From assembly GCA_945787465.1 (NCBI GenBank), contig CALZIZ010000018.1:1-54311 (forward strand): a stretch of 54,311 bases of DNA, read 5' to 3'. Shown piece after piece: positions 849 through 49,939 of this stretch. Made by a program: the position numbers and the translations under genes. The notes beneath the pieces were generated by a model, which saw nothing but the letters and a program-made list of their open reading frames with translations, was not told the DNA's origin and searched no databases. Numbering within the stretch: the stretch's first letter is position 1; the number at the start of each line of letters is the position of its first letter. Origin of the DNA: an uncultured Desulfuromonadales bacterium (lineage in GTDB: Bacteria; Desulfobacterota; Desulfuromonadia; Desulfuromonadales; Trichloromonadaceae).

Positions 849-876
849 TTGCTAAAGTACCGCAGGGCTATATACT
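849..876 (+). promoter_or_regulatory. Candidate sigma-70 promoter for the first alcohol dehydrogenase operon
   Basis: TTGCTA (849-854) and TATACT (871-876) are separated by 16 bases, each close to the -35 and -10 consensus. Transcription would begin near 883. A promoter here excludes a translation start at the TTG at 849 and supports the ATG at 930. Confidence 0.55.
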
Positions 877-929
877 TTTTAAAAAGGATCGGCTTTTCAC
901 TGGCGGGACGAAAAACAACGAGGTCAACA

Positions 930-27675: not shown

Positions 27676-28881
27676 ATGCCCCATTTCAGAGATGTAAAAC
27701 GCACCCTCTCGAACGAAAGACAAGAGTACCCGATCAAGATGCAGCACGCCTATCCTTCGGTCAACATCGGTTGGGGAGCCCATACCATGGTAGGTAATGA
27801 CGCCAGGGCCCTGGGCATGACCAACGCCCTGATCGTCACCACCGGCCTCAAGGGGACCGGCATCATCGAAACCATCCAGGGAGTTTTGAAGGCTGCCGAA
27901 GTCTCCTCGGAGGTCTTTGACAAAACGACTCCCAACCCCAAAGATTTCGAAGTCATGGAAGGCGCCAAGGCGCTCTCCGCCGGTGGTTTTGACGGTATTA
28001 TCAGCATCGGCGGCGGATCTACCACCGACGCCTGCAAGGCCATCAAGCTGGTTCACGCCCACGACGGCCAGGATGTGCGAAGCTTCGAAGGGGCCTTCAA
28101 GGCGACCAAGGCGAACAAGATTCCCCACCTCGCCATCAACACCACCTCGGGTACCGGCTCGGAGATCTCCTGCTTCTCGATCATCAATCACACCGAGAAG
28201 AAGTACAAGATGGCCTTGTTCGATCCCAACTGTACTCCCAGCAAGTCGGTGAACGACCCCCTGCTCCACCAGTGCATGCCCCAGGAGCTGGCTGCTTACA
28301 CCGGCATGGACGCCCTGACCCATGCGGTAGAAGCCATCTCATCCCGCCTCTGCGTGCAGTCCGCCTACGGCCCCGGCCTCTGGGCGATTACCGAGATTTT
28401 CAAAAACCTGCGCGAGTCGGCATGCAACCGAAATAACGACAAGGCCGTCGAGCAGATGGTCTGGGCCGAAATGTCCGCAGCCTACAGCTTCAACAGCGCG
28501 GGTCTGGGCATCGTTCACAGCATGGCCCACGCCATGGGCGGTCTCTACGACTCTCCCCACGGGCTGTGCAATGCCATCGCCCTGGTCGACGTCGCCCGTT
28601 TCAACCTGCCGGCATGTCCTGACCGTTTCGCCATGATGGCCCGCGCCGCCGGGATCAACACCGACGGCCTATCCGACATCAAGGCCGGTGAGTTGTTCAT
28701 CGACATGGTTCAGGAGCTCAAGGACGACCTGGAAATCGAGACCACCTTCGCTGACCTCGGCCTGAAGGATGCTGACCTCGACGGCCTTTCCAAGTTCGCC
28801 GCAGCCGATATCTGCTCCGAAGGCAATCCCAAGGATGTCGGGTTCGAAGAAATGCGCAAAGTCTTCAAGGGCTGCATGTAA
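27676..28881 (+). CDS. Iron-containing alcohol dehydrogenase, methanol dehydrogenase (MDO)-like (copy 3)
   Basis: A 401-residue group III dehydrogenase of a different branch from those at 930 and 11664. It has TTGLKGTGIIE, NPKDFEVMEGA, IISIGGGSTTDACKAIK, NTTSGTGSEIS, GMDALTHAVEA, GIVHSMAHAMGG and DSPHGLCNAIAL, including the Asp and three His metal ligands. From memory, TTGL+G+GIIE, SNPKD/NPKDF, HDG...FEG and DPLL resemble the nicotinoprotein methanol dehydrogenases of actinobacteria, which keep NAD tightly bound and need mycofactocin or an artificial acceptor. GAGGAGG lies 9 bases before the ATG. It has its own sigma-54-type promoter and terminator, which suggests strong single-gene expression. 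Ordinary NAD-dependent ethanol dehydrogenase remains possible. Confidence 0.9.
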   Translation: MPHFRDVKRTLSNERQEYPIKMQHAYPSVNIGWGAHTMVGNDARALGMTNALIVTTGLKGTGIIETIQGVLKAAEVSSEVFDKTTPNPKDFEVMEGAKALSAGGFDGIISIGGGSTTDACKAIKLVHAHDGQDVRSFEGAFKATKANKIPHLAINTTSGTGSEISCFSIINHTEKKYKMALFDPNCTPSKSVNDPLLHQCMPQELAAYTGMDALTHAVEAISSRLCVQSAYGPGLWAITEIFKNLRESACNRNNDKAVEQMVWAEMSAAYSFNSAGLGIVHSMAHAMGGLYDSPHGLCNAIALVDVARFNLPACPDRFAMMARAAGINTDGLSDIKAGELFIDMVQELKDDLEIETTFADLGLKDADLDGLSKFAAADICSEGNPKDVGFEEMRKVFKGCM

Positions 28882-28914
28882 GACCAAGTCTTCAAGGGCT
28901 GCATGTAAGACCAA
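28861..28914 (+). repeat. 27-base tandem duplication at the end of the third dehydrogenase gene
   Basis: GTCTTCAAGGGCTGCATGTA plus AGACCAA occurs twice in perfect tandem (28861-28887 and 28888-28914). The first copy holds the last codons and the stop; the second is outside the reading frame's end and non-coding. It looks like a recent slippage or duplication event. Confidence 0.9.
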
Positions 28915-28937
28915 AATTGATGTAGAATGAAAAGAAG

Positions 28938-28995
28938 GAGCCGCTGGTTTCTGGGAAGTTTCCACTCCTGGCGCCAGCGGCTCTTTGCTTTTTTT
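28938..28995 (+). terminator. Rho-independent terminator after the third dehydrogenase
   Basis: GAGCCGCTGG (28938-28947) pairs with CCAGCGGCTC (28974-28983), followed by TTTGCTTTTTTT. Confidence 0.9.
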
Positions 28996-29027
28996 CTGCC
29001 AGATGCCATCGACACGAGGTGCTCATG

Positions 29028-29924
29028 ATGACCGAACAAGATGTTAGTGAATTGCTCCGCTCGGGGGGCTATATCGCTGATGAAGCTATCGCGACAGCGG
29101 TTTTTCTTGCCCTGCGGATGGAGAAGCCGATCCTGATTGAAGGGCCGCCCGGTGTCGGTAAAACAGGTCTTGCCAAGACCCTCTCTGAGGTCATGGACCT
29201 GTCTCTGGTTCGGCTCCAGTGTTATGAGGGGATTGACGAAGGTAAGGCGCTCTACGACTGGGAATACGGTAAGCAGTTGCTCTACACCCAGATGCTGCGC
29301 ACCCAGCTCGACAACCAACTGAGCGGCGCCTCCGACCTGCGCGACGCCGTAGAGCGGTTGGCCAGCGAAGAGAGTCTGTTCTTCTCCGAGAACTTTTTGG
29401 TGCAACGGCCGGTACTGCGCAGCTTTCTCTCGGAAAAACGTTCGGTCTTGCTGATCGATGAAATTGACCGCTCCGACGATGAATTCGAGGCGCTGCTGCT
29501 CGAGTGCCTGAGCGATTTCCAGGTCTCCATCCCCGAGCTTGGCGTCCTTAAAGCCAAACAGAAGCCGCTGGCGATTCTCACCAGCAACGGCACGCGGATG
29601 ATCTCCGACGCGCTGCGCCGGCGCTGCCTGTATCTCTATATCGATTACCCGGAGTTGGAGCGTGAGGTGCAGATCGTGCGCGCCCGGTTCCCCGACATCT
29701 GTGATGAACTGGCCCATCAGATGGTCGGCTTTTTGCGCAAAGCCCGTGAACTCAACCTGCGCAAACCGCCGAGTGTTTCGGAAACCCTCGACTGGGCCGA
29801 AGTCCTGTCGATTCTGCATGTGACCAAATTGACCCCGGAGGTGGTGGCCAACACCGTCGGTGTTATTTCCAAGCACCAGGCTGATCTGTCGCAGGTGACA
29901 GAGCTGGCCATCAACGAATTGTAG
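29028..29924 (+). CDS. MoxR-family AAA+ ATPase
   Basis: A 298-residue AAA+ protein with Walker A GPPGVGKT (about 39-46), Walker B VLLIDEID, sensor 1 TSNGTR and arginines RRRC. It belongs to the MoxR/CoxD group, which acts as chaperones in assembly or metal insertion, usually with a VWA-domain partner. The next gene, 40 bases away, is such a partner. ATG 29028 has GAGGT seven bases upstream; GTG 29019 and ATG 29025 are in frame. The client enzyme is not evident; a neighbouring metal-dependent dehydrogenase is possible but unsupported. Confidence 0.88.
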   Translation: MTEQDVSELLRSGGYIADEAIATAVFLALRMEKPILIEGPPGVGKTGLAKTLSEVMDLSLVRLQCYEGIDEGKALYDWEYGKQLLYTQMLRTQLDNQLSGASDLRDAVERLASEESLFFSENFLVQRPVLRSFLSEKRSVLLIDEIDRSDDEFEALLLECLSDFQVSIPELGVLKAKQKPLAILTSNGTRMISDALRRRCLYLYIDYPELEREVQIVRARFPDICDELAHQMVGFLRKARELNLRKPPSVSETLDWAEVLSILHVTKLTPEVVANTVGVISKHQADLSQVTELAINEL

Positions 29925-29964
29925 GGGCGCGGCATGCCGTGCCCTGCAACCGGAAGGGTTGCAT

Positions 29965-31356
29965 ATGGAAACCATTATCACCAGATTTGTTGCCGACCTG
30001 AGAAAGGAAGGCTTACGTGTCTCCCCGGGAGAGAGCCTCGATGCCGTGTGCGCCCTGGCGCACGGCGGCGTTGAAGGGCGGGCCTCGGTGCATGCCCTGC
30101 TGCGCTTGACGCTGGTGAAAAATGTCCACGATATCCCGATCTTCGATCAGGTTTTTAACCGCTTCTTCAGGAGTTATCCGGAAGGGATGGGGGTTGCCCC
30201 TGCAGATCTGCTGCATGAAGCGATCATCGGCATGGAAGGGGAGCAGATGCTCGGCACCAACCCGGAAATGGTCAATGAGAACATGTCGTTGGCGATGGTC
30301 GAGTCGGGCCTGGATCTGGAAGACCTGAAAGATCTCGTGCGGCTAAGAGAGATCGACTTTGATGAGCTCGATGGATCAGAAACACAGGTGCAGATGAAAG
30401 GCTACCGCGGGTCGCTCGAAGCATCGAGGCCCTCGATGCGCATGCCGCAGAACCCGATCACCATGGCCTTTAAAGATCCTGCCGGACAAAAACGGGACCT
30501 GAGCTTTACCCCGCAGGAAGTCGACGAGATGGAGGATGCGGTCTCACGGATGCTCATGCGTCTGAAAAAAGATATCCGCCGGGTCAAGAACATGGAGAAC
30601 CGGGGCAAAATCCACGTTGTCCGCACCATTCAGAAAAACTATCGCAACGGCATGGTGCCGTTTCTGTTGGCACTGCGCCGCAAACGCAAGCAGAAACCGC
30701 GGCTGGTGGTGCTCTGTGACGTCAGCTTTTCCGTCAGCCACGCGTCACAGTTCATGCTGCTGCTGCTGCATACCCTGCACAACCGCTTAATGGATGTCCG
30801 CAGCTTCATCTTCAACGCCGAGTTGGCCGAAATTACCGAAATGCTTTCCAACGCACCGATCAACACCATGCTGGAGACCATCGACAGCGGTAAGATCGTA
30901 GACTTGGATGAAAACAGCAATTACGGAGAAGTCTTCCTGACTTTTAAGGATAAATTTCTGGAGAACCTGCGCGGCCGGCCGGCGGTGATTTTTTTAGGTG
31001 ATGCCCGCAACAATTACAATAAGGCGAACGACTGGGTGCTTGAGCAGGTGCGTGAGAAGGCCGGATATATGCTCTGGTTGACCCCCGAAGATCGTGAATT
31101 ATGGCAGCGGGGTGATTGCCTGATCGGTACCTATGGCGCCTACTGCGACAAGGTCGAGGTGGTCAAGAGTGTCGAAGAGTTGAACCTGATTGTTGAAGAT
31201 TTGTTCCGCAACATCTACCTTGAGGATGAGCATCGCTCCAAGCGGACGATTGACAAGGTCGAAGCGGACGAGGAATACGATTATCGCGATTATTACACCC
31301 GTGGCGGCAGTGGTGCGGCGCCGAAGTTCGATGGTCAGGGGCGTAGCCACTGGTAA
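29965..31356 (+). CDS. CoxE-like VWA domain-containing protein
   Basis: A 463-residue protein. The N-terminal half is helical and charged (FVADLRKEGLRVSPGESLDAV). The C-terminal half is a von Willebrand A domain with the MIDAS motif DVSFSVS. This is the usual arrangement of CoxE, the partner of MoxR/CoxD ATPases in maturing metalloenzymes. ATG 29965 is chosen (GGAAGGG upstream) over a TTG two codons earlier. It shares an operon with the ATPase gene. Confidence 0.85.
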   Translation: METIITRFVADLRKEGLRVSPGESLDAVCALAHGGVEGRASVHALLRLTLVKNVHDIPIFDQVFNRFFRSYPEGMGVAPADLLHEAIIGMEGEQMLGTNPEMVNENMSLAMVESGLDLEDLKDLVRLREIDFDELDGSETQVQMKGYRGSLEASRPSMRMPQNPITMAFKDPAGQKRDLSFTPQEVDEMEDAVSRMLMRLKKDIRRVKNMENRGKIHVVRTIQKNYRNGMVPFLLALRRKRKQKPRLVVLCDVSFSVSHASQFMLLLLHTLHNRLMDVRSFIFNAELAEITEMLSNAPINTMLETIDSGKIVDLDENSNYGEVFLTFKDKFLENLRGRPAVIFLGDARNNYNKANDWVLEQVREKAGYMLWLTPEDRELWQRGDCLIGTYGAYCDKVEVVKSVEELNLIVEDLFRNIYLEDEHRSKRTIDKVEADEEYDYRDYYTRGGSGAAPKFDGQGRSHW

Positions 31357-39907: not shown

Positions 39908-39924
39908 ATGGCATCCCCATTGCA
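39908..39924 (+). promoter_or_regulatory. Candidate sigma-54 (-24/-12) promoter of the mycofactocin locus
   Basis: ATGGCATCCCCATTGCA is one base from TGGCAC-N5-TTGCA, the best sigma-54 match in the window. Transcription would begin near 39936, about 54 bases before mftA. Confidence 0.75.
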
Positions 39925-39989
39925 ATATACCAAAAACAACACGGTGCATCCCGAACAGGTGCCCTACACACATCAAAAGGAGAAGAATA

Positions 39990-40121
39990 ATGGAAAAGAA
40001 ACTGGCTAACAAAATGGACATTGAAAAGCACGAAACCGAAGCAAACACCGAGGAGCCCTGCGTCATGGAAGAGATCCAGGTTGAAGAACTCGCCATCGAC
40101 GGCATCTGCGGGGTTTACTAA
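39990..40121 (+). CDS. mftA: Mycofactocin precursor peptide MftA
   Basis: A 43-residue peptide, MEKKLANKMDIEKHETEA and onward, ending in IDGICGVY. The conserved C-terminus of MftA is IDGxCGVY, whose last Val-Tyr pair is decarboxylated and cross-linked by MftC and later released to give the redox core. The acidic leader (EEIQVEELA) fits leader binding by MftB. AAGGAGA lies upstream of the ATG. The stop is 1 base before the mftB start. It is too short for usual gene callers and is identified by its C-terminus and its neighbours mftB and mftC. Confidence 0.95.
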   Translation: MEKKLANKMDIEKHETEANTEEPCVMEEIQVEELAIDGICGVY

Positions 40122-40122
40122 G

Positions 40123-40365
40123 ATGGCTGCGGCAGGCATCAGGCTGCATCCCGCCTGCCGCGTGCGGCAGGAAAAGTTCGGCCTCCTGTTTTACGATTCA
40201 AGGGGGCCGCGCTTGCTCTTTGCCGAAACCGGCAGCCTTCTTTCTCCCGACTTCTTCAGGGGGGGGGATCTCAACGATCTCCAAGGCTCCCTGTCGCACG
40301 GGCAGAAAGAGCAGGTAGGCAAGTTCCTGGCACAGCTTGTTGAAAGGGGGTTTCTCCGTGAGTAA
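40123..40365 (+). CDS. mftB: Mycofactocin precursor-binding protein MftB
   Basis: An 80-residue protein with IRLHPACRVRQEKFGLLFYDSRGPRLLFAETGSLL, the opening of the RiPP recognition element of MftB. It binds the MftA leader and presents the peptide to MftC. Compared with actinobacterial MftB it is somewhat short. There is no strong ribosome binding site; the start lies one base after the mftA stop, so coupling is likely. It overlaps mftC by 8 bases. Confidence 0.88.
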   Translation: MAAAGIRLHPACRVRQEKFGLLFYDSRGPRLLFAETGSLLSPDFFRGGDLNDLQGSLSHGQKEQVGKFLAQLVERGFLRE

Positions 40366-41383
40366 CCGATTTGTTGAAATGGGGATGCGCTCCCCGGTGA
40401 ACCTGACCTGGGAAGTGACCCTCGCCTGCAACCTGCGCTGCCGGCATTGTCTGTCATCCTCGGCCGAACCGGCCGAGGGTGAGCTTTCCACCGCCGAGGC
40501 CCTGGCCCTGGTCGACCAGCTGCATGACGATGGGGTTTTTCAGGTCAACTTCGGCGGCGGGGAGCCGTTCATGCGTCCCGATTTCGGCGAGATTCTCGAT
40601 GCCTGCCACGAAAAGGGCATCATGACCTGCATCTCCGGCACGCTGATCACCCCTGAGCTGATCGAGAGGCTCTCCCGTAATCGCCTGGTCGCCATCCAGG
40701 TCAGCCTCGACGGGGCAAAAAAAGAGACCTGCGAGGCGATTCGCGGCGAAGGGACTTACGATGCGGCGATCAAGGCTCTCAAGCTGCTGGCTGCATCGCC
40801 CATCCCGACCAGCATCAACACGGTTCTCACCGTGAACAACGCCGACGAGATCCCGGCGCTGCACGATCTGGCCAACTCCCTCGGCGTCTCGTTGCGGGTC
40901 AGCCGCTTCCGTCCCTCGGGGCGCGGGGCGGACAACTGGGAGGAGCTGCGGCCCAACCCGTCCCAGCTGCTGGCCTTTTCGACCTGGCTCGAGGGCAGCG
41001 GCGATGTGCGCACCGGAGACAGTTTCTTCTCCCTTACCTCCCAGGAGCGCCAGGGGCTGGGGCTCAACCTCTGCGGGGCTGCCAAACTCACCTGCTGCGT
41101 TGGTCCTACCGGAAAAGTCTATCCCTGCGCCTTTATGCAGACCGACCGCTTCGAGGCGGGCGACCTGCGTAACAACACCTTCAAGGAGATCTGGGACAAT
41201 TCGGAGATCTTCGACTCCCTTCGCGGGCTGCGCATTCATTCTTGCGAAGACTGCAAGCGTTTCGACCAGTGTCATGGCGGCTGCCCGGCGGTAGCCTACC
41301 ATCTCAAGGACGATATCGAAGGCGGAGATCCCGAGTGTCTCGAGCGCTGTGTGACCTCGATTGCCGATGCGAATGTGGCGTAA
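40358..41383 (+). CDS. mftC: Mycofactocin radical SAM maturase MftC
   Basis: A 341-residue radical SAM/SPASM enzyme. The cluster motif is C24-x3-C28-x2-C31 (LACNLRCRHCLSSSAEP). QVNFGGGEPFMRPDF and VSLDGAKKETCEAIRG follow. The SPASM domain has LCGAAKLTCCVGPTGKVYPC and CEDCKRFDQCHGGCPAVAYH, ligands for auxiliary clusters. MftC decarboxylates the terminal tyrosine of MftA and forms the Val-Tyr cross-link. It begins at GTG 40358 with GGGGG upstream, inside the end of mftB. An intergenic inverted repeat follows it, so read-through to the next genes is uncertain. Confidence 0.93.
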   Translation: MSNRFVEMGMRSPVNLTWEVTLACNLRCRHCLSSSAEPAEGELSTAEALALVDQLHDDGVFQVNFGGGEPFMRPDFGEILDACHEKGIMTCISGTLITPELIERLSRNRLVAIQVSLDGAKKETCEAIRGEGTYDAAIKALKLLAASPIPTSINTVLTVNNADEIPALHDLANSLGVSLRVSRFRPSGRGADNWEELRPNPSQLLAFSTWLEGSGDVRTGDSFFSLTSQERQGLGLNLCGAAKLTCCVGPTGKVYPCAFMQTDRFEAGDLRNNTFKEIWDNSEIFDSLRGLRIHSCEDCKRFDQCHGGCPAVAYHLKDDIEGGDPECLERCVTSIADANVA

Positions 41384-41386
41384 TCC

Positions 41387-41465
41387 TGTAGGGGCGCCCC
41401 TTGTGGGTGCCCGGCTTTGAGGGGAACCACAAGAATCAAGGGCGACCACAAGGGTCGCCCCTACA
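41387..41465. repeat. Intergenic inverted repeat (TGTAGGGGCG type)
   Basis: TGTAGGGGCGCCCCTTGTGG at the left pairs with the end read in reverse, TGTAGGGGCGACCCTTGTGG. It is a dispersed repeat between mftC and the OYE gene and could form a strong hairpin in the transcript. Confidence 0.8.
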
Positions 41466-41533
41466 AAATCACCAGTCTGACAGGCTCCCTGCGCCTGTCG
41501 GTGGCAAATGGACAATCAACAGGAGTTACAACC

Positions 41534-43495
41534 ATGATGTTCCAGAATCTTTTTTCGCCTCAGAAGCTCGGCAAGGTGGAAGTGAAAAATCGCATTTCCT
41601 TTCAGCCGCATCTGACCAATTTCGCCGAGAAGTGCATGCCCAGCGAACGCCACATGTACTACTGGGGGGAGCGGGCCAAAGGGGGCGTGGGACTCATCAC
41701 GACTGAAGAGATGAGTGTCCATCCCACCGACACCGCCTACGAAAAGCTTGTCGAGGCGTTTCACCCCGAGGTCATTCCCGGCTTCCGCAAGATCACCGAT
41801 TATGTCCACCAGTACGACACCAAGATCTTCTGCCAGCTCAACCACAACGGCCAGCAGTGCGACGGCAGCATCTCACGCCTGCCGGTCTGGGCGCCGAGCC
41901 CGGTACCCGACGTGCTGTTCCGCGAAACGCCCAAGGCGATGGAATTTGAGGATATCGAAGAGGTCTGCCGCTTTTTCGCCATCAGCGCCGAGCATGTGCG
42001 CCAGGGTGGCTTCGACGGGGTCGAACTGCAGTTCGGCCACTCGAGCCTGGCCCGCCAGTTCCTTTCGCCGCTGACCAACCACCGCCAGGATGAATTCGGC
42101 GGCAGCCTCGAGAACCGCATGCGCGCCCCGCTGATGTTCATCGAAGCGGTGCGCAAGGCGGTCGGCAACGACTTTACCCTCGGCATCCGCATGTGCGCCG
42201 ACGAGATGATCCCCGGCGGGCTCGACCTGGCACAGGTGCAGGAGATCTGCGCGCTCTTCGAAGCAAGCGGCCTGATCGACTTCGTCGATCTGTCCATCGC
42301 CACCTTCTACAACCTCTACCTGGTCGAAGGTTCCATGCACACCCCGCTCGGCTACACCGTTCCGCTGGCAGCCGGCATTCGAGAGAAGGTCGATCTGCCG
42401 GTCTTCTGCACCGGGCGCATCAACGACCCGGTGATGGCCGAGAAGGTTCTTTCCGCAGGTCAGGCCGACATGATCGGCATGTGTCGGGCGCTGATCTGCG
42501 ACCCCTTCCTGCCGAAAAAGGCCGAAGAGGGACGGCTCGAGGATATCCGCTACTGCATCGCCTGCAACCAGGGCTGCATCGGCCGCATGGGCATCAACCG
42601 CAGCCTGGGCTGCGTGCAGAACCCCGCGGTCGGGCTGGAGAAGCAGTGGGGCGAAGGGACCCTCAAGCCGGCCCCGGTGAAGAAGAAGGTCATGGTGGTC
42701 GGCGGCGGCCCCGGCGGGATGTGGGCGGCCAAGATGGCCGGACGCCGCGGTCACGACGTCACCCTCTACGATGCCAACGACACCCTCGGCGGCCAGGTTC
42801 GCACCGCCATGAAGGCGGCCGGGCGCGACGAGTTCGGGGTCATCATCCGTAATGAAAAAGATCAGGTCGACAAGGCCGGGGTCAAGGTCGAACTCGAAAC
42901 CAAGGTCACGGCCGAGCAGGTGCTCGGTGCCGGGGCCGATACGGTCATTGTCGCTACGGGCAGCAAGCCCAAGTCCCACCCGGTAGGCGGCGCCGACGGT
43001 CCGGGGGTCTACAACGTCTGGCAGGTGCTCGACGGCCAGGCCGATCTGGGCGAGAAGGTCTGTTTGATCGACTACGACGGCCACCACCGGGCCACGGCCA
43101 CCGCCGAGTACCTCGCCGACCAGGGCAAGACCGTGCACATTATCTGCTCAAGCCTCTTTATCGGCGCCGAGCTCGGCCCGACCCAGGACCTTTACCTGAC
43201 CCGCCAGCGGCTGCTGACCAAGGGCGTGACCTTTACCCCCGACATTGCGGTCATGGAAGTCGGCGGAGAGGTGGGCGCCAAGACGGTCAAGGGCTTCAAC
43301 GTCTACTCCAACGCATGGGACGAGTGGGGCCCCTACGACAACCTGGTGCTCGCCATGGGCCAGGATGTGGACGACGACCTCTACTTCGCCCTCAAGGGCA
43401 AGGTCAAGGAGCTCCACCGGCTCGGTGACTGCGTGGCCCCCCGCAAGGTCGATATGGCCATCTGGGAAGGGCACAAGGTGGGGAGGGAGATCTGA
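41534..43495 (+). CDS. Old Yellow Enzyme/FadH-type oxidoreductase of the mycofactocin locus
   Basis: A 653-residue three-part protein. An FMN TIM barrel (1-330) contains GGFDGVELQFGHSSLARQF and FGGSLENRMRAP. A [4Fe-4S] site follows (C341, C344, C348, C360). The FAD/NAD(P) domain has VVGGGPGGMWAAKMAGRRG (about 388-406) and ends LHRLGDCVAPRKVDMAIWEG. It is the architecture of 2,4-dienoyl-CoA reductase, and OYE-like members are a recognised accessory of mycofactocin loci. AGGAG lies eight bases before ATG 41534. Its stop overlaps the etfA start (TGATG). It may pass electrons from reduced mycofactocin to the ETF; that is inference. Confidence 0.9.
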   Translation: MMFQNLFSPQKLGKVEVKNRISFQPHLTNFAEKCMPSERHMYYWGERAKGGVGLITTEEMSVHPTDTAYEKLVEAFHPEVIPGFRKITDYVHQYDTKIFCQLNHNGQQCDGSISRLPVWAPSPVPDVLFRETPKAMEFEDIEEVCRFFAISAEHVRQGGFDGVELQFGHSSLARQFLSPLTNHRQDEFGGSLENRMRAPLMFIEAVRKAVGNDFTLGIRMCADEMIPGGLDLAQVQEICALFEASGLIDFVDLSIATFYNLYLVEGSMHTPLGYTVPLAAGIREKVDLPVFCTGRINDPVMAEKVLSAGQADMIGMCRALICDPFLPKKAEEGRLEDIRYCIACNQGCIGRMGINRSLGCVQNPAVGLEKQWGEGTLKPAPVKKKVMVVGGGPGGMWAAKMAGRRGHDVTLYDANDTLGGQVRTAMKAAGRDEFGVIIRNEKDQVDKAGVKVELETKVTAEQVLGAGADTVIVATGSKPKSHPVGGADGPGVYNVWQVLDGQADLGEKVCLIDYDGHHRATATAEYLADQGKTVHIICSSLFIGAELGPTQDLYLTRQRLLTKGVTFTPDIAVMEVGGEVGAKTVKGFNVYSNAWDEWGPYDNLVLAMGQDVDDDLYFALKGKVKELHRLGDCVAPRKVDMAIWEGHKVGREI

Positions 43496-44523
43496 TGACT
43501 GCCAGCAATGCTCCACAAAAAAGTCCTCCGGCCAAGGTCCTGGTCTTTGTCGACCTGCCCGGAGGGGAACTGGACGATGCCGGCAAAGGCATCATCTCCG
43601 AGGCCTCCCGGCTGGCAAAAACCCTCGGCTGCGAATGGTCGGCTATCTCCCTTGCCGGTTCCGAGAATGAGGCGATCCAGGAGTTCGCCCCCTACGGCGT
43701 CCCCGGCGTCACCCTGATCGAGGCAGGTCCCGGCGCGACCGATTCCCTCGAGGCGCAAGGGCAGCTTCTGGCCCTTGCGGCTGCGGAACTCGGCGCCAGC
43801 GTGGTGCTGCTTCCGCACAACGACCTGGGCGGATCCCTGGCACCGCTGCTGGCTTCGCAGCTTCAGGCCGCTCTTTTCACCGAAGCGATCGGCTATGACT
43901 CTGAGGACGACGGCCTGAAGCTGATGCGCCAGATTCTCGGTGTACAGGTGGCCGAGTCGAAGCTCTGGGATCAGAGCGTTTCGCTGGTGCTCACCATGAA
44001 CCCGCGGGTGCTGAGCGCGGTGGTGCTGCCGACCATGCAGCGCAGCGAGCTCCAGATCAGTCCCTGGAGCTCGTCGACTGCGGTTGCGGCCGGACCGTCG
44101 CGGATCGTCGAGCGCATCCCCCCCGATCCCCAGACCGTCGATGTCACCGAGGCCGAGGTCATGGTCAGTGTCGGGCTCGGCTGCAACGAGCAGGGTTTTG
44201 AGCAGGTCAAGGAGCTGACCCGCCTGCTCAACGCTTCGCTCGGCGTCACCCGCCCGGTTTACGACCTCGGCTACGCCGAATTCGAGCGCATGGTCGGGCA
44301 GACCGGTAAAACCGTCGCCCCCCGCTTCTACCTGGCCCTGGGGATCTCGGGCTCGATGCACCATCTCGGCGGGATCAAGGACTCCAAGAAGGTCGTTTCG
44401 GTCAACATCGACTCCAAGGTGCCGATCTTCCCCAATTCGGACGAAGGCTTCGTCGCCGACCTGCGGGACGTCCTGCCGCTTCTGATCGAGCGGGTCAAAT
44501 CAGCTACGGGAGGTACCGCATGA
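43495..44523 (+). CDS. etfA: Electron transfer flavoprotein alpha subunit (FixB-like)
   Basis: A 342-residue protein. The N-terminal domain (KVLVFVDLPGGELDD) is followed by the FAD-binding domain with LALGISGSMHHLGGIKDSK and VNIDSKVPIFPNSDEGFVADLRDVLP, the ETF-alpha signature. It forms a heterodimer with ETF beta (gene at 46283) and carries electrons to the FixC-type flavoprotein. It overlaps the neighbours on both sides by 1-4 bases, so OYE, etfA, fixC and fixX are made from one transcript. Confidence 0.93.
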   Translation: MTASNAPQKSPPAKVLVFVDLPGGELDDAGKGIISEASRLAKTLGCEWSAISLAGSENEAIQEFAPYGVPGVTLIEAGPGATDSLEAQGQLLALAAAELGASVVLLPHNDLGGSLAPLLASQLQAALFTEAIGYDSEDDGLKLMRQILGVQVAESKLWDQSVSLVLTMNPRVLSAVVLPTMQRSELQISPWSSSTAVAAGPSRIVERIPPDPQTVDVTEAEVMVSVGLGCNEQGFEQVKELTRLLNASLGVTRPVYDLGYAEFERMVGQTGKTVAPRFYLALGISGSMHHLGGIKDSKKVVSVNIDSKVPIFPNSDEGFVADLRDVLPLLIERVKSATGGTA

Positions 44524-45818
44524 AACGCACATTTGACGCCATCGTCGTCGGCGCAGGCCCCGCCGGATCGTCGGCGGCCCTGACCATGGCCAAAGCCGGG
44601 CTCGACGTAGCTCTGCTCGAGCGGGGCGAGTTCCCCGGCGAGAAGAATATGTTCGGCGGAGTGCTGCACCGCCTGACCGCCCTCGAGGACGTCTTTCCCG
44701 ATTTCTGGAACCAGGCGCCCTTAGAGCGGCACATCGTCAAAAAGGCCCTGACCTTCATGACGGGCGATGCGAGCTTTAACGTCAACTTCGACACCGAGGA
44801 ATCGGATAAGCCCCCCTATAATGGCTACACCATCAGCCGTCCCAAGTTCGACCGCTGGCTGGCCGAAGAGGCCGTCAAGGCCGGGGCGACGCTGATGAAC
44901 CGCTCCACCGTCGACGACGTGATCCGCGAAGGAGGCAAAATCGTCGGGGTGACCCTGCTGCGCGACGGCGGCGAGCTGAGGGCGCCGGTGGTGATTGCCG
45001 CCGACGGCGTGCTCTCCTTTACCGCCAAGAAGGCGGGGCTGCGCCGTCCCCAGTTCGACCCGTCGCACCTGGCGGTGGGGGTCAAGGCGCTGATCGACAT
45101 GCCCAAGGAGGTCATCGACGACCGCTTCGGCCTGGTGCGCGACCAGGGGGCTTCTAACGAAATCGTCGGCTGCTCGCAAGGGGTGCGCGGCGGCGGCTTT
45201 CTCTACACCAACTATGACTCCCTCTCCATCGGGTTGGTGCTGCACTTAAGCAGCCTGAGCAAAAGCGGCAAGACCCCCTACGACCTGCTCAACGACTTCA
45301 TGCAGCAGCCGCAGATGGCCAAGCAGCTGCGGGGCGGACGCCTGCTCGAATACTCGGCGCACCTGGTCCCTGAAGGGGGCTACGACATGATCCCCGAGAT
45401 CATCGGCGACGGCATCATGGTGGCCGGCGACGCCGCGGCCATGTGCATCGTCACCGGGCTCAATCTCGAGGGGATCAACCTGGCGACCCAGTCCGGCGTG
45501 CTGGCCGGCAAGGCGGCCCTCGAGGCGCACCAGAACCGCGACTTCTCCAAGTCCGGCCTCGCCGTCTACCGGCGCCTGCTCGAGGAGAGCTATGTGCTCA
45601 AAGACCTCAAGCTCTATCGCCGCACCCCGGAGATGCTCCACAACGACCGCATCTACACCCAGTACCCCGAAATGCTGTGCGGCCTGATGGACGAGATCTA
45701 CCGCATCGACGGCACCCCCAAAGACACCATGACCAAGCTGCTGCTACGCACAGCCAAGCAAAAGATCGGCATCAAGAACCTGCTGGCCGATGTCTATCAG
45801 GGATGGAGAGCCTTATGA
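44520..45818 (+). CDS. fixC: FixC/ETF-quinone oxidoreductase-like flavoprotein
   Basis: A 432-residue FAD protein. The dinucleotide-binding site is VVGAGPAGSSAALTMAKAG (9-27). GYTISRPKFDRWLAEEA and IMVAGDAAAMCIVTGLNLEGINLA are family segments of the FixC/ETF-QO group. It accepts electrons from ETF and, together with FixX, passes them to membrane quinone; FixABCX complexes can also bifurcate electrons to ferredoxin or flavodoxin. Overlaps with etfA and fixX are ATGA-type (4 bases). Confidence 0.92.
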   Translation: MKRTFDAIVVGAGPAGSSAALTMAKAGLDVALLERGEFPGEKNMFGGVLHRLTALEDVFPDFWNQAPLERHIVKKALTFMTGDASFNVNFDTEESDKPPYNGYTISRPKFDRWLAEEAVKAGATLMNRSTVDDVIREGGKIVGVTLLRDGGELRAPVVIAADGVLSFTAKKAGLRRPQFDPSHLAVGVKALIDMPKEVIDDRFGLVRDQGASNEIVGCSQGVRGGGFLYTNYDSLSIGLVLHLSSLSKSGKTPYDLLNDFMQQPQMAKQLRGGRLLEYSAHLVPEGGYDMIPEIIGDGIMVAGDAAAMCIVTGLNLEGINLATQSGVLAGKAALEAHQNRDFSKSGLAVYRRLLEESYVLKDLKLYRRTPEMLHNDRIYTQYPEMLCGLMDEIYRIDGTPKDTMTKLLLRTAKQKIGIKNLLADVYQGWRAL

Positions 45819-46099
45819 GTATCAACCTCGACGAAATTTTCGACTATACGAGCTTCAATATCGACCGCGACGCCCACATCGTCCTCGACACCGAAATCTG
45901 CAAGAGTTGCGACCAGAGGGCCTGCGTCAACTGCTGCCCGGCGCGCTGCTATACCTGGAGCGAAGAGGACAAGAAGATGACCTTCGTCCACGACGGCTGT
46001 CTCGAGTGCGGCACCTGCTACGTGGTCTGCCAGAAAGAAGCCTTCACCCGCTGGCGTTATCCCAAGGGCGGGTTCGGGGTTTCTTTCCGGATGACCTGA
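45815..46099 (+). CDS. fixX: FixX-type ferredoxin
   Basis: A 94-residue ferredoxin-like protein, MSINLDEIFDYTSFNIDRD and onward. The N-terminal cysteines (C29, C32, C37, C40, C41, C45) and the cluster motif C62-x2-C65-x2-C68-x3-C72 (GCLECGTCYVVCQK) match FixX, which docks to FixC. It shares ATGA with the fixC stop. An inverted repeat separates it from etfB. Confidence 0.92.
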   Translation: MSINLDEIFDYTSFNIDRDAHIVLDTEICKSCDQRACVNCCPARCYTWSEEDKKMTFVHDGCLECGTCYVVCQKEAFTRWRYPKGGFGVSFRMT

Positions 46100-46127
46100 G
46101 AAAGCAGGTTCCAGGTTCGAAGTTACC

Positions 46128-46214
46128 GTAGGTTGGGTCAAGGAGAGAAGCGACGGACCCAACAAAGGTCGTTTGTTTATCAATCGTTGGGTTTCGTTCC
46201 TCAACCCAACCTAC
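46128..46214. repeat. Intergenic inverted repeat (GTAGGTTGGGT type), copy 1
   Basis: GTAGGTTGGGT at the left is mirrored by TCAACCCAACCTAC at the right, with inner GGACCCAAC/GTTGGGTTTC pairing. The same family occurs at 48618-48697, so the two copies bracket etfB and mftF. Confidence 0.85.
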
Positions 46215-46282
46215 TGTGGCACATGTGGGAGCGGCTTCAGCCGCGAAGGTTTCCGGTTCTATAGAGGAAATGGAGCAATAAA

Positions 46283-47179
46283 ATGCCAAACAAAACAATT
46301 CAGATAGTCGTGCTGCTGCGCGAGACCTGCGATCCCCGTCCGCCTGCGCGATTGACCGCCGACAGCTATTCGATCGGCGACCGCGGCCTGCGTCGCATCG
46401 CCAACCCGGCCGACCTCTGTGCCCTTGAGCAGGCCCTGCAACTGGCCGAATCGGTGGACGGCAGCGTGACAGCCGTCGCCGTAGGCCCCGACCGGCTCGA
46501 CGATCACCTGCGCCTGGCCCTTTCCATGGGCGCCGAGCGCCTGGTGCGCATCTGCAGCTCAGCCTTTCAGGGGGGCGACGCAACGACTGATGCGAAGGTG
46601 GTTCAAAGGGTCGTCGACATCCTCAAACCCGACCTGGTCTTTACCGGCAACCGCCTGCTCGATAAGGGCAACGATCCGGTCCCCGCCCTGGCGGCGGCCA
46701 ATCTCGGCATCCCCTATATCACCGGCGGAGTCTCCCTTGCCTGTGAGGATGACGAGGTGGAGGTGCTGCGCAAGAGCGACCGCGGCGCCCGCCAGCGGGT
46801 CGCTGCGACCATGCCCTGCGCGGTCTTTTTCGAGGACGGCTGCTGCGAGCCGCGCTATCCCGACCAGGACGCCCTGATGTGTTCGATAGGGGCGAAGGTC
46901 GAATGCTGGGGGCTGCCCGAGCTCGGCCTGGCCGTGTTCGAACTCGGGGGCTTCGGGGCCCTGCTTTCCAAAGAGAAGTGCAGCTTTCCCCGGCCGAACC
47001 CGGTGCGGGTGGTCACTCCCGATGCCGAACTCCCTGCATTTGACCGTATCCTGGCCCTGCTCTCGGGCGGCATCAAGCCGAGAGAGGGGAAGCTTCATAC
47101 AGAATCGGCCGAGAAAACCGCGGAGATGCTCTTCAACATCTTCAAGGACGAAGGATTGATCGGCGGGGGGAGCCCATGA
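46283..47179 (+). CDS. etfB: Electron transfer flavoprotein beta subunit (FixA-like)
   Basis: A 298-residue protein of the ETF-beta fold: IQIVVLLRETCDPRPP at the N-terminus, NPADLCALEQALQLAE, VTAVAVGP and LALSMGAERLVRI, then LVFTGNRLLDKGNDPVPALAAANLGIPY. It pairs with the alpha subunit at 43495, from which it is separated by fixC, fixX and a repeat. AGAGGAAATGG lies upstream. Its stop overlaps mftF (ATGA). Whether it carries the features of bifurcating ETF cannot be settled by eye. Confidence 0.88.
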   Translation: MPNKTIQIVVLLRETCDPRPPARLTADSYSIGDRGLRRIANPADLCALEQALQLAESVDGSVTAVAVGPDRLDDHLRLALSMGAERLVRICSSAFQGGDATTDAKVVQRVVDILKPDLVFTGNRLLDKGNDPVPALAAANLGIPYITGGVSLACEDDEVEVLRKSDRGARQRVAATMPCAVFFEDGCCEPRYPDQDALMCSIGAKVECWGLPELGLAVFELGGFGALLSKEKCSFPRPNPVRVVTPDAELPAFDRILALLSGGIKPREGKLHTESAEKTAEMLFNIFKDEGLIGGGSP

Positions 47180-48597
47180 TCTACCGCCTGGCAGAAGGGA
47201 TCGACATCCAGGAAGCCCCCGAGGGGGGATTCCTGGTCGCCTCAAGGCCGCTGCGCATGGTGCGCCTCAATGCGCCCCTGCTGACCCTGGCCCGACGCAT
47301 GGAGCAGGGCGGCGTCACTCCTTCATCGCAAGCCGAGACCAAAGCGCTCGAAACCCTCGCCAAAGGGGGCTTTGCCAAAAGGGAGTGGCAGCCGGTCACA
47401 GATGCGGAACTTCTGCCCACGGTAAGTATCGTCATCCCGGTCAAAGACCGCGCAGACGACCTGCGTAACTGCCTGGTCTCCCTGGCGGCTCTCGACTATC
47501 CCCAGGAAAAACTCGAAGTTATCGTGGTCGATGACGGCAGCACCGACGACACGCCGGATGTCGCCCGAAAGCTCGGCGCCCGCCTGGTCCCATCGGGCGC
47601 GGTCGGCGGCGGTCCCGCCGTGGCCCGCAATAAAGGTGCGTCCGTGGCCTCTGGGGAGATCCTCGCCTTTATCGATTCGGACTGCACCGCCTCAAATAAG
47701 TGGCTGATGGAGCTGCTGCCGGCCTTCACCGAAGAGAAGGTGGCGGCGGTCGGCGGCTGGGTCGACGGCATGCACCACGAATCCGCCCTCGACCGCTACG
47801 AAGCGGTCATGTCGAGTCTCAACCTCGGCCGAAGGGAGATGACCGGTGGGGCCGGGGGGGATACTTTCTATCTGCCGAGCTGCAACCTGCTGATCCGCAA
47901 GGAGGCCTTTGCCGCCGCAGGCGGCTTCCGCGCCGAACTGCATGTGGGAGAGGACGTCGATCTGACCTGGCGGCTGCGCGACGGCGGCTGGAAGATCGCC
48001 TACCTTCCTGTCGGTACCGTCTTTCATGCCCACCGCAGCCGGCTCTGGCCCTTTATGAAGCGGCGCTTCGACTACGGCACCTCCGAGGGGATGCTGCAGC
48101 AGCTGCACCCGGTGCGGGGCAAAAAGATGCTCGTCCCCCCGATGCTGGCGGTCATCCTGCTGCTGCTGGCAGGGGCCCTGGTCTTCCAGTCCCTGCTTCC
48201 CCTGCCGGTGGCGGCCATGCTGCTGCTCGGCGATGCCGCTCTTGCCACCAACAAAATGCGCAAACAGAAGCTGCCTCTTTCCTTCTTCAAGGTGCTCTCG
48301 GCGCGGGGACGTGCGGCAGGCAGCCTCGGCTACTACATCAGCTACCACCTGATGCGTTACTATCTCGTCCCCCTTCTCCTTGCCGTCCTTCTCTATCCCC
48401 CTGCCGGTCTGCTGGTTCTGGCCATCGTGGCCGGGGCAGGAGGGGTCGATTACCGGGTGCGAAAAGCGAATCTGTCGCCTGCCCTCTTTTACCTCTATTA
48501 CCTGCTGGAGCAGCTCTCCTACGGCAGCGGCGCTTTCTGGGGTTGTGTTCAGTCGAAAAGTTTTGCCAGTTACCGACTGGACCTTAAAGGGGCCTGA
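47176..48597 (+). CDS. mftF: Mycofactocin glycosyltransferase MftF
   Basis: A 473-residue family 2 glycosyltransferase. A PqqD/RRE-like N-terminal segment (about 18-75) includes LRMVRLNAPLLTLARRM. The GT-A domain begins VSIVIPVKDRADDLRNC, with VVDDGSTDDTPDVARK, the metal-binding IDSDC and GEDVDLTWRLRDGGW. Four or five membrane helices follow from about 315. In actinobacteria MftF adds a chain of beta-1,4-linked glucose units to premycofactocin. The length and layout agree with that family, and the shared ATGA overlap with etfB and the presence of mftABC support the assignment. Confidence 0.9.
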   Translation: MIYRLAEGIDIQEAPEGGFLVASRPLRMVRLNAPLLTLARRMEQGGVTPSSQAETKALETLAKGGFAKREWQPVTDAELLPTVSIVIPVKDRADDLRNCLVSLAALDYPQEKLEVIVVDDGSTDDTPDVARKLGARLVPSGAVGGGPAVARNKGASVASGEILAFIDSDCTASNKWLMELLPAFTEEKVAAVGGWVDGMHHESALDRYEAVMSSLNLGRREMTGGAGGDTFYLPSCNLLIRKEAFAAAGGFRAELHVGEDVDLTWRLRDGGWKIAYLPVGTVFHAHRSRLWPFMKRRFDYGTSEGMLQQLHPVRGKKMLVPPMLAVILLLLAGALVFQSLLPLPVAAMLLLGDAALATNKMRKQKLPLSFFKVLSARGRAAGSLGYYISYHLMRYYLVPLLLAVLLYPPAGLLVLAIVAGAGGVDYRVRKANLSPALFYLYYLLEQLSYGSGAFWGCVQSKSFASYRLDLKGA

Positions 48598-48617: not shown

Positions 48618-48697
48618 GTAGGTTGGGTTGAGGAACGAAACCCAACGTTGTATTTCGACCGTCGGTGTGTTGGGTTTCCTTCGTCAACCCAACCTAC
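48618..48697. repeat. Intergenic inverted repeat (GTAGGTTGGGT type), copy 2
   Basis: GTAGGTTGGGTTGAGGAACG is mirrored by the end TCAACCCAACCTAC with GGGTTTC between. It is the same family as 46128-46214 and follows mftF directly. Confidence 0.88.
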
Positions 48698-48802: not shown

Positions 48803-49939
48803 ATGGACAACGCCCGAACAGTCAGGAAACTCTTTTTTAACGCGCTTCGCTATCGCCTGCTGAAGGCCACGGGCCGGCCCTGCCGGCTTGATGCGATCAG
48901 TCTCGAAATCACCCACCGCTGCATCTGCCGCTGCCGCATGTGCAATATCTGGCAGATTCCCCCCGAGGTTCCCGATCTGGCCCTCTCCGACTGGACCGAT
49001 CTGCTGTCTTCTCGAGAGCTTCGCGGCTTGCGCGAGCTGGATATCACCGGGGGCGAGCCCTTTTTGCGCAAGGACCTGGGGGACCTCCTCGAGTGGATCT
49101 CCAGCTCAAAACCCGAGTGTTTCCCCGAGTTGAAAACGGTGGCCATCACCACCAATGGAATTCTGACCGAAAGAGTTCTGGAGGTTATCGGTCAGATTGC
49201 CGGGCCGATGCAGGTGAGGGGAATCGACCTGGTTCTGGCCTGCGGCATGGACGCCGTCGGGGTTTTGCACGACGAGATCCGCAATCATAAAGGGGCCTGG
49301 CACAAACTCAGCGCCACGATTGCCGGGCTCAAAGAGCTGAGAAATTCCCACGCGAACCTGATTCTCGGCATCAAAACCACCATCGTCCCCTCCAATGTGC
49401 ACGAACTCGATCGGATCGTCTCCTTTGCCGGGGAGCATGATCTTTTCACCATCATTTCGCCATGCATTATCACCGCCAACAGGTTCGGCAACGTCGATCT
49501 CAAAGAAGATCTGCAGTTCAGCGCCGAAGACCTTCAAGCTCTCAGGCGCTTTTATGAAAGCCCGGTCTTTGCCTGGAGCGTCCACCGACAGTCCATGCTG
49601 CACTACCTAAAGACCGGGACGGCGCAGAAACCGTGCTCCGCGGGGTTCAACACGGTCTTCGTTCGCCATACCGGCGAGGTGTTCCCCTGCCCCCTGATCC
49701 CTGATTCCCTGGGCAATATCAAAGATTCCGGAATGCAACAGCTGCTGGCCAGCCCGCAGGCGACTCAGTTCCGTAAAGGGATTGGAGAGTTCCCCGAATG
49801 CAAACAGTGTACTGAGCCAGGCCTTGAACGCATCGCCTGGCCTTTTGAGGGTCTCACCTGCCTGCGCCGAATTGCCCGCATGGGCTTCGGCGATTTCGAT
49901 CGCCTGGCCAGGCATATGGGGCTGGATAAATACCTGTGA
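48803..49939 (+). CDS. Radical SAM/SPASM protein downstream of mftF
   Basis: A 378-residue enzyme. The cluster motif is C40-x3-C44-x2-C47 (THRCICRCRMCNIW), followed by LDITGGEPFLRKDL and AITTNGILTERVLEVIG. A C-terminal auxiliary cluster region has KPCSAGFNTVFVRHTGEVFPCPL and CKQCTEPG. ATG 48803 is preferred, as the 22 residues before it have no family character. It resembles radical SAM enzymes of cofactor and lipid modification. It starts 205 bases after mftF, beyond an inverted repeat, in the same direction. It may act on mycofactocin or be unrelated. Confidence 0.85.
   Translation: MDNARTVRKLFFNALRYRLLKATGRPCRLDAISLEITHRCICRCRMCNIWQIPPEVPDLALSDWTDLLSSRELRGLRELDITGGEPFLRKDLGDLLEWISSSKPECFPELKTVAITTNGILTERVLEVIGQIAGPMQVRGIDLVLACGMDAVGVLHDEIRNHKGAWHKLSATIAGLKELRNSHANLILGIKTTIVPSNVHELDRIVSFAGEHDLFTIISPCIITANRFGNVDLKEDLQFSAEDLQALRRFYESPVFAWSVHRQSMLHYLKTGTAQKPCSAGFNTVFVRHTGEVFPCPLIPDSLGNIKDSGMQQLLASPQATQFRKGIGEFPECKQCTEPGLERIAWPFEGLTCLRRIARMGFGDFDRLARHMGLDKYL

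What the first reader, a model, noticed from the sequence alone, without database searches (positions are those of the whole stretch)
39908..48597. Mycofactocin locus carrying a complete ETF-FixC-FixX electron-transfer set
The gene order is mftA, mftB, mftC, OYE-type oxidoreductase, etfA, fixC, fixX, etfB, mftF, tightly packed with one- to eight-base overlaps inside each block. Mycofactocin is best known from actinobacteria, where the route for reoxidising the reduced cofactor is incompletely defined. Here a dedicated path is written into the locus: cofactor to OYE protein, to ETF, to FixC/FixX and on to quinone, or with bifurcation to ferredoxin (Rnf and a ferredoxin are in the same window). 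The gene identities are read from motifs; the pathway is inference.
Basis: partly seen in the sequence, partly recalled or inferred. Interest (0 to 1): 0.92.

Follow-up and report, generated by a model that had tools for sequence, protein, structure and literature searches.

The report
Mycofactocin operon carrying OYE-ETF-FixCX genes
A bacterial operon for making the redox cofactor mycofactocin carries, in place of the usual enzyme for its last oxidation step, another oxidoreductase with its own electron-transfer chain, which may let the cofactor be made without oxygen.

Summary
Genes and order are as described: mftA-B-C-OYE2-etfA-fixC-fixX-etfB-mftF. Of 40 other mft loci of the class sample, 27 show this order complete, 12 are cut by contig ends, a gap or a split fixX, and one lacks the block. 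The block also stands on Streptomyces and haloarchaeal plasmids, and NCBIfam already names the OYE and both ETF subunits.

New here: the block alternates with MftD, which oxidatively deaminates AHDP to premycofactocin. Of 62 mft-positive genomes, 58 have OYE2 without MftD, 2 MftD without OYE2, 1 both (the window's own, 6% contaminated), 1 neither. Twelve plasmid loci split 8 to 4. MftG passes its cut-off in 0 of 62, block or not.

OYE2 lacks the NAD(P)H motif, like ETF-linked amine dehydrogenases; the ETF looks non-bifurcating. Best reading (inference): OYE2-ETF-FixCX is a quinone-linked premycofactocin synthase. Reoxidation of reduced mycofactocin stays the main rival. The missing mftD beside TIGR03997 is in print for Saccharopolyspora (PMC11162802, passages), function called unknown.

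The parts
39990..40121 (+). mftA, precursor peptide of 43 aa ending IDGICGVY
   Evidence: TIGR03969 and NF040489 over cut-off; Pfam MftA
40123..40365 (+). mftB, peptide chaperone
   Evidence: TIGR03967 over cut-off
40358..41383 (+). mftC, radical SAM/SPASM maturase
   Evidence: TIGR03962 335.8 bits, cut-off 265
41534..43495 (+). OYE2, FMN/4Fe-4S oxidoreductase of the FadH/TMADH architecture without NAD(P)H motif; proposed AHDP (amine) dehydrogenase
   Evidence: TIGR03997 962.4 bits, cut-off 793; alignments with 6qkg, 1ps9, 1djn, 6de6; motif comparison
43495..44523 (+). etfA, ETF FAD-binding subunit
   Evidence: Pfam ETF_alpha and ETF; NF038209 below cut-off
44520..45818 (+). fixC, ETF:quinone oxidoreductase flavoprotein
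   Evidence: 7koe_C 292 bits over the full length
45815..46099 (+). fixX, ferredoxin-like partner of FixC
   Evidence: PRK15449 FixX 63.6 bits, below cut-off
46283..47179 (+). etfB, ETF beta subunit, non-bifurcating by sequence
   Evidence: best PDB match 1o94_C, the ETF of the TMADH-ETF complex; diagnostic residues
47176..48597 (+). mftF, glycosyltransferase
   Evidence: TIGR03965 379 bits, cut-off 280
27676..31356 (+). Fe-alcohol dehydrogenase (27676-28881), MadB-like AAA ATPase (29019-29924) and MadC-like VWA protein (29959-31356): likely source of electrons for mycofactocin, conserved upstream of mft in other loci
   Evidence: homologues at the same side of mft in several loci

Best explanation
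The locus is a mycofactocin biosynthesis operon of an MftD-less type. MftA-B-C make the cyclised Val-Tyr core and a peptidase releases it as AHDP. OYE2 then oxidises the primary amine of AHDP, as MftD does elsewhere, giving premycofactocin. OYE2 cannot use NAD(P)H; its electrons leave through the 4Fe-4S cluster to the co-encoded non-bifurcating ETF, then FixC/FixX, then menaquinone. No oxygen is needed, which suits an anaerobe. MftF glycosylates the product, which takes up electrons from iron alcohol dehydrogenases such as the one upstream. Shown here: gene content and order, the alternation with MftD, absence of MftG and of MftE over cut-off, loss of the NAD(P)H motif, lack of the bifurcation marks. 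Inferred: the substrate AHDP, the electron path, menaquinone as acceptor, oxygen independence.
For: (1) Whole-genome alternation: 62 mft-positive genomes, OYE2 without MftD 58 (55 over cut-off; G135 cut by a contig end, G090 interrupted by an N gap, G304 in fragments), MftD without OYE2 2 (G016, G574), both 1 (G000), neither 1 (G332). (2) Plasmid loci, 12 kb to each side: block without mftD in 8, mftD without block in 4 of 12. In Streptomyces the block starts right after mftC, where mftD stands in the other type. (3) At least 5 switches on the MftC tree; sister rows L010 (MftD) and L011 (block) group at 99 SH-aLRT; L005 (MftD) is elsewhere. (4) MftD is needed: the mftD deletion of M. smegmatis piles up AHDP and makes no mycofactocin, while mftE can be bypassed (PMC7491314, passages). 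So MftD-less producers need a substitute, and OYE2 is the catalytic oxidoreductase that replaces it. (5) Saccharopolyspora clusters lack mftD and carry TIGR03997, and S. erythraea is reported there to make methylated mycofactocin (PMC11162802, passages; the primary paper PMC9679996 is not held). (6) Among the best full-length PDB matches of OYE2 are TMADH and histamine dehydrogenase; all 68 mft-linked OYE sequences that reach the region lack GxGxxG, the FadH-like control L174 keeps it. (7) EtfB's best PDB match is the ETF of the TMADH-ETF complex.
Against: OYE2 scores higher against 2,4-dienoyl-CoA reductase (277.6 bits) and 6qkg NCR (332) than against TMADH (240) or histamine dehydrogenase (232). 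It lacks the cysteine of the covalent flavin and two TMADH active-site residues (C30 to L27, W264 to L261, D267 to V264; TMADH roles recalled, positions). The window's own genome has OYE2 and two MftD genes; it is 6.27% contaminated and the near relative G573 has no MftD, but contamination is not proven. G332 has neither. Loci are not independent: 4 of 4 independent pairs go the expected way but the sign test gives p 0.125. Plasmid hosts were not searched for mftD elsewhere. EtfA's best PDB match is the bifurcating CarE, not the TMADH partner (116.9 against 80.4 bits). No biochemistry exists for any protein of the block.
Confidence: 0.5

Rival explanations
1. One reading: OYE2 oxidises reduced mycofactocin and passes the electrons over ETF and FixC/FixX to menaquinone, replacing MftG.
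For: MftG (TIGR03970) is over cut-off in 0 of 62 mft genomes and TIGR04542 in 0 of 195 and 0 of 22. About a quarter of MftC genomes lack MftG and the substitute is called an open question (PMC11778925, passages). Premycofactocin -255 mV (PMC7491314) against menaquinone -74 mV (PMC10734219) makes the flow downhill. OYE2 is tied to mft genomes.
Against: The two block-less mft genomes G016 and G574 lack MftG too, so something else reoxidises mycofactocin there. It leaves the 58 MftD-less genomes without an enzyme for the AHDP step. The block alternates with MftD, not with MftG: among the 4 MftD plasmid loci only 2 show mftG within 12 kb.
Confidence: 0.22
2. One complex for both: OYE2 oxidises AHDP once per molecule during biosynthesis and the reduced cofactor repeatedly afterwards, so that making and recycling share one quinone-linked chain.
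For: Most class loci carry a single OYE gene, no MftD and no MftG. In genomes with two mft loci (G240, G469) only one locus carries the block, fitting action on a free small molecule. Streptomyces and several other loci carry two OYE genes, OYE1 and OYE2, which could split the two tasks.
Against: No direct evidence; the two block-less genomes recycle without it.
Confidence: 0.15
3. OYE2-ETF serves another substrate (an enoate, acyl-CoA or amine) and travels with mft for another reason, or runs as a reductase fed by the ETF.
For: OYE2 scores higher against ene and acyl-CoA reductases than against amine dehydrogenases.
Against: OYE2 over cut-off only in mft-positive genomes (0 of 154 others); alternation with MftD.
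Confidence: 0.1
4. A bifurcating ETF couples mycofactocin oxidation to quinone and ferredoxin reduction.
For: FixC/FixX resemble the bifurcating EtfABCX of Thermotoga; EtfA keeps the arginine of the RPXFGG motif (window RQILGV; R in 61 of 65 aligned) and its best PDB match is a bifurcating ETF.
Against: EtfB: the Gly123 position (A. fermentans, invariant in bifurcating ETFs, PMC12630350 passages) is Lys128 in the window; of 48 distinct EtfB aligned it is Gly in 2, another small residue (A, C, S) in 10 and otherwise larger. The Arg of RXGV is Asp/Glu in 43 of 48, and GXXSPTXV is absent in the window protein (motifs from PMC10734219, passages). EtfB of Streptomyces and haloarchaea fell below the 60-bit limit and were not aligned. 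OYE2 offers no hydride site for NADH.
Confidence: 0.03

Closest known systems
Canonical mycofactocin operon mftABCDEF(G) of actinobacteria
   Same: mftA, mftB, mftC and mftF present and over cut-off
   Different: No mftD, mftE or mftG in the window; MftE and MftG over cut-off in 0 of 62 related mft genomes; an OYE2-ETF-FixCX block stands after mftC
mftD-less mycofactocin-like clusters of Saccharopolyspora with a TIGR03997 oxidoreductase (PMC11162802, passages seen)
   Same: mftD missing, TIGR03997 present
   Different: The passages I saw call the oxidoreductase of unknown function and name no ETF or FixCX; here the alternation is counted across phyla with the electron chain
NCBIfam TIGR03997 (mycofact_OYE_2), NF038209 (mft_etfA), TIGR04503 (mft_etfB)
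   Same: The OYE is over cut-off; ETF subunits hit these models first or second
   Different: The window's ETF subunits are below both cut-offs, so these models do not name them
Trimethylamine dehydrogenase / histamine dehydrogenase with their ETF
   Same: FMN plus 4Fe-4S plus degenerate nucleotide-binding domain; EtfB closest in the PDB to the TMADH partner
   Different: No covalent-flavin cysteine, other active-site residues; not a member of either
FixABCX / EtfABCX (Thermotoga 7koe)
   Same: FixC and FixX, ETF pair
   Different: ETF lacks the bifurcation marks in EtfB; gene order differs
MftG, mycofactocin dehydrogenase of mycobacteria (PMC11778925)
   Same: Would deliver electrons from mycofactocin chemistry to the respiratory chain
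   Different: Unrelated family; absent over cut-off in 0 of 62

Membership tests
Mycofactocin biosynthesis locus | MftA, MftB, MftC and MftF over curated cut-offs, adjacent | tested here: met
Mycofactocin biosynthesis locus | MftD (TIGR03966) in the locus | tested here: not met
   none in the window locus; two copies elsewhere in the own MAG
Mycofactocin biosynthesis locus | MftE (TIGR03964) over cut-off in the genome | tested here: not met
   own genome best 112.9 of 172; 0 of 62
Mycofactocin biosynthesis locus | The organism makes mycofactocin | not testable with these tools
   needs LC-MS
TIGR03997 mycofactocin OYE 2 | score over cut-off | tested here: met
   962.4 of 793
NF038209 / TIGR04503 mycofactocin-associated ETF | score over cut-off | tested here: not met
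   133 of 240; 92.7 of 200
TMADH / histamine dehydrogenase | no NAD(P)H-binding GxGxxG in the third domain | tested here: met
TMADH / histamine dehydrogenase | cysteine for 6-S-cysteinyl FMN | tested here: not met
   Leu27 in the window
TMADH / histamine dehydrogenase | four cysteines for the 4Fe-4S cluster | tested here: met
   C341, C344, C348, C360 in the window; position 344 is Asp in 26 of 72 relatives
TMADH / histamine dehydrogenase | oxidises an amine and reduces ETF | not testable with these tools
   assay needed
Bifurcating ETF (group 2) | Gly at A. fermentans EtfB 123 | tested here: not met
   Lys128
Bifurcating ETF (group 2) | RXGV and GXXSPTXV motifs in EtfB | tested here: not met
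   window has DRGL and no SPT
Bifurcating ETF (group 2) | RPXFGG motif in EtfA | tested here: not met
   RQILGV; the arginine itself is kept
FixC/FixX ETF:quinone oxidoreductase | FixC homology over the full length and adjacent FixX ferredoxin | tested here: met
FixC/FixX ETF:quinone oxidoreductase | reduces menaquinone | not testable with these tools
   assay needed

The most novel reading that the evidence does not exclude
A second, oxygen-independent way to build mycofactocin: OYE2 with ETF and FixC/FixX is a respiratory premycofactocin synthase that also recycles the finished cofactor, so that making and recycling one and the same peptide cofactor are wired into the quinone pool; bacteria of several phyla and haloarchaea have swapped this module against MftD several times.
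Probability: 0.3. Interest if true: 0.82.

Novelty: new variant of a known kind. Interest (0 to 1): 0.62.

Why it matters
If right, it names the missing enzyme for the redox-centre step in a whole class of mycofactocin producers, explains why so many anaerobes and some Streptomyces lack mftD, shows how a cofactor whose known route uses a different flavoenzyme can be finished by an anaerobe, and gives a concrete candidate for the open question how producers without MftG connect mycofactocin to respiration. Genome-mining rules that demand mftD would miss these clusters (PMC11162802 reports such a misclassification, passages seen). All steps can be tested with synthetic AHDP and premycofactocinol.

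Tried and rejected
Bifurcation: rejected for the window ETF on EtfB motifs, with the caveats listed. Fold comparison of the EtfB model (mean pLDDT 68.5) did not separate canonical from bifurcating ETFs. The OYE2 model was too poor to use (mean pLDDT 48.8), so no fold search was run with it. TIGR04542 was first used for MftG; a paper showed that TIGR03970 is the main MftG model, so the 62 mft genomes were searched again. Papers on mycofactocin with ETF: none held; further searches on the combination: (most subscription journals are not in that library, so absence from print is not shown beyond it). Conserved AAA and VWA genes near the haloarchaeal plasmid loci are only annotated as such: the window's MadB- and MadC-like proteins did not hit them at E 1e-15. 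An Actinomycetota-wide genome count could not be made. Rows left out of counts: G332 has no type label on the tree; duplicate loci and identical sequences were counted once; EtfB hits under 60 bits were not aligned.
Full report
OBSERVATION. MftA, MftB, MftC, the OYE protein and MftF pass their curated NCBIfam cut-offs; the ETF subunits hit the mycofactocin-associated ETF models but stay below cut-off; Pfam and PDB matches settle their identity as ETF and FixC. The window's genome is a 5.45 Mb MAG in 555 contigs, 96.2% complete, 6.27% contaminated.

HOW COMMON. MftC is over cut-off in 38 of 195 genomes of the class sample and OYE2 (TIGR03997) in 38 of 195; 35 genomes have both. The three with OYE2 only (G117, G130, G193) end their contigs inside mftC next to the block, which makes 41 mft genomes. 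The three with mftC but no OYE2 over cut-off are G135 (contig ends inside OYE2), G090 (a run of N inside OYE2) and G016 (no OYE2). So OYE2 is over cut-off in 0 of the 154 genomes without mft. Gene order in the 40 loci other than the window: complete in 27, cut short or interrupted in 12, and mftA-B-C-F without the block in one, G016.

ALTERNATION WITH MftD. MftD (TIGR03966) is over cut-off in 2 of 195 class genomes: the window's own, with two copies outside the window, and G016, the one without the block; the next best hit anywhere in the class is 123 bits against a cut-off of 471. A second block-less locus, L005, has an MftD gene about 1.4 kb upstream of mftA, and its genome G574 has no OYE2 (236 bits) while MftD reaches 667. 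In the phylum sample 18 of 395 genomes have mftC over cut-off, 13 of them outside the class. Of these 13 none has MftD over cut-off and 11 have OYE2 over cut-off; G304 has fragments and G332, where the contig ends behind mftC, has neither. Eight further named genomes (G573-G580; no contig length in common with the sample) give OYE2 only in seven and MftD only in G574. Sum of 62: OYE2 only 58, MftD only 2, both 1, neither 1. Fisher's test gives p 0.0047, but relatives are not independent. On a tree of 72 MftC rows the type changes at least 5 times; L010 (MftD; same stretch as G016) and L011 (block) are sisters at 99 SH-aLRT, and L005 lies elsewhere. Four independent pairs all go the expected way, sign test p 0.125, the least that four pairs can give.

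OUTSIDE THE PHYLUM. Twelve PLSDB plasmids carry mftC. Within 12 kb, eight have OYE2-etfA-fixC-fixX-etfB and no mftD: six Streptomyces (one unannotated, typed by my own comparison; in SAT1 the OYE2 match is in two pieces and unannotated) and the haloarchaea Haloterrigena turkmenica and Halolamina. Four have mftD and no block: Thermomicrobium, Streptomyces NBC_00080, Tsukamurella, Mycolicibacterium chubuense. Their chromosomes were not searched. Within one genus, Streptomyces, both types occur.

MftG AND MftE. MftG is over cut-off in 0 of 62 mft genomes with TIGR03970 (best 245.7 bits of 387 in G020), and TIGR04542 in 0 of 195 and 0 of 22. MftE is over cut-off in 0 of 62, with weaker creatininase-like matches in 39. 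As MftG is missing also where the block is missing, the block does not stand in for MftG in a visible way; it does for MftD.

WHY A SUBSTITUTE IS NEEDED. In M. smegmatis the mftD deletion piles up AHDP and abolishes mycofactocin, whereas mftE can be bypassed (PMC7491314, passages). Saccharopolyspora clusters without mftD carry a TIGR03997 protein 'with unknown function', and the paper cites production of a methylated mycofactocin by S. erythraea (PMC11162802, passages). This is independent support and prior art for part of the finding.

WHAT OYE2 CAN DO. Best full-length PDB matches: 6qkg NCR 332 bits, 2,4-dienoyl-CoA reductase 278, TMADH 240, histamine dehydrogenases 232 and 227. In the third domain the FadH motif GCGGIG is DYDGHH in OYE2, and TMADH and histamine dehydrogenase are degenerate there too. 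Of 72 aligned sequences, 68 mft-linked ones reach this region and none has GxGxxG; 3 are truncated; the FadH-like control L174 keeps GGGAVG. Histamine dehydrogenase carries FMN, 4Fe-4S and ADP (PMC10180351, passages); that it deaminates a primary amine and that TMADH reduces an ETF is recalled, the latter also stated in PMC12630350 (passages). OYE2 is not a member of either: no covalent-flavin cysteine, and two TMADH active-site residues differ. His169 aligns with TMADH His172.

THE ETF. EtfB matches the ETF of the TMADH complex best by sequence and by profile (74.3 and 117.3 bits; next best 65.4 and 100.6). The residue that is glycine in bifurcating EtfB (PMC12630350) is Lys in the window; in 48 distinct relatives it is Arg in 32, Ala, Cys or Ser in 10, Gly in 2. 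The Arg of RXGV (PMC10734219) is acidic in 43 of 48. EtfA points the other way in overall score (CarE first). The foldseek comparison does not separate the kinds.

SOURCE OF ELECTRONS. An iron alcohol dehydrogenase, a MadB-like ATPase and a MadC-like VWA protein lie 9-12 kb upstream; homologues stand upstream of mft in many class loci, the block-less L010/L080 included. Haft tied iron alcohol dehydrogenases to mft in Geobacter uraniireducens (PMC3023750, abstract and passages), and Geobacter pickeringii has a methanol-oxidation cluster upstream of mft (PMC4358379, passage).

VERDICT. Observation confirmed. The block is ordinary for this class and partly named in NCBIfam; what is new is its alternation with MftD and the reading that follows. 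I give 0.5 to the synthase reading, 0.22 to reoxidation alone, 0.15 to both, 0.1 to another substrate, 0.03 to bifurcation.

Noticed in passing
window 46125-46217 and 48618-48697: Hairpin-forming repeat elements bracket etfB-mftF; 30 nt of one (46185-46214) are the exact reverse complement of 48618-48647. They fill the gaps after fixX and after mftF.
   Followed up: partly
window 41534-43495 (residue 344 of OYE2) and relatives: One of the four 4Fe-4S cysteines is Asp in 26 of 72 aligned OYE sequences, including many single-OYE class loci; it may tune the cluster. The window protein has Cys.
   Followed up: partly
window 48803-49939: Radical SAM/SPASM protein behind mftF, over no NCBIfam cut-off; homologues lie close behind mftF in L004, L005, L017 and L065 and elsewhere in some other mft loci.
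   Followed up: no
L176-L178, L182, L184; L097, L098, L105, L107: Many mft loci outside the class and on Streptomyces plasmids carry two OYE genes in tandem (OYE1, OYE2); OYE1-like rows have PES or AES in place of the active-site HSS.
   Followed up: partly
window 849-2090, 11664-12830, 27676-28881: Three iron alcohol dehydrogenase genes in one window; the first passes the cut-off of the regulatory protein family ErcA (615.5 of 550), the third is closest to NDMA-dependent methanol dehydrogenase but under its cut-off (297.5 of 625).
   Followed up: no
L052 (G000:C264) and L053 (G000:C130): Two MftD genes of 94% DNA identity on different contigs of the window's MAG, one near an IS66 transposase gene; either strain mixture, contamination or a recent copy.
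   Followed up: partly
L188 (G469:C56) and L183 (G240:C48): Second mft loci without the block in genomes that have the block elsewhere.
   Followed up: no
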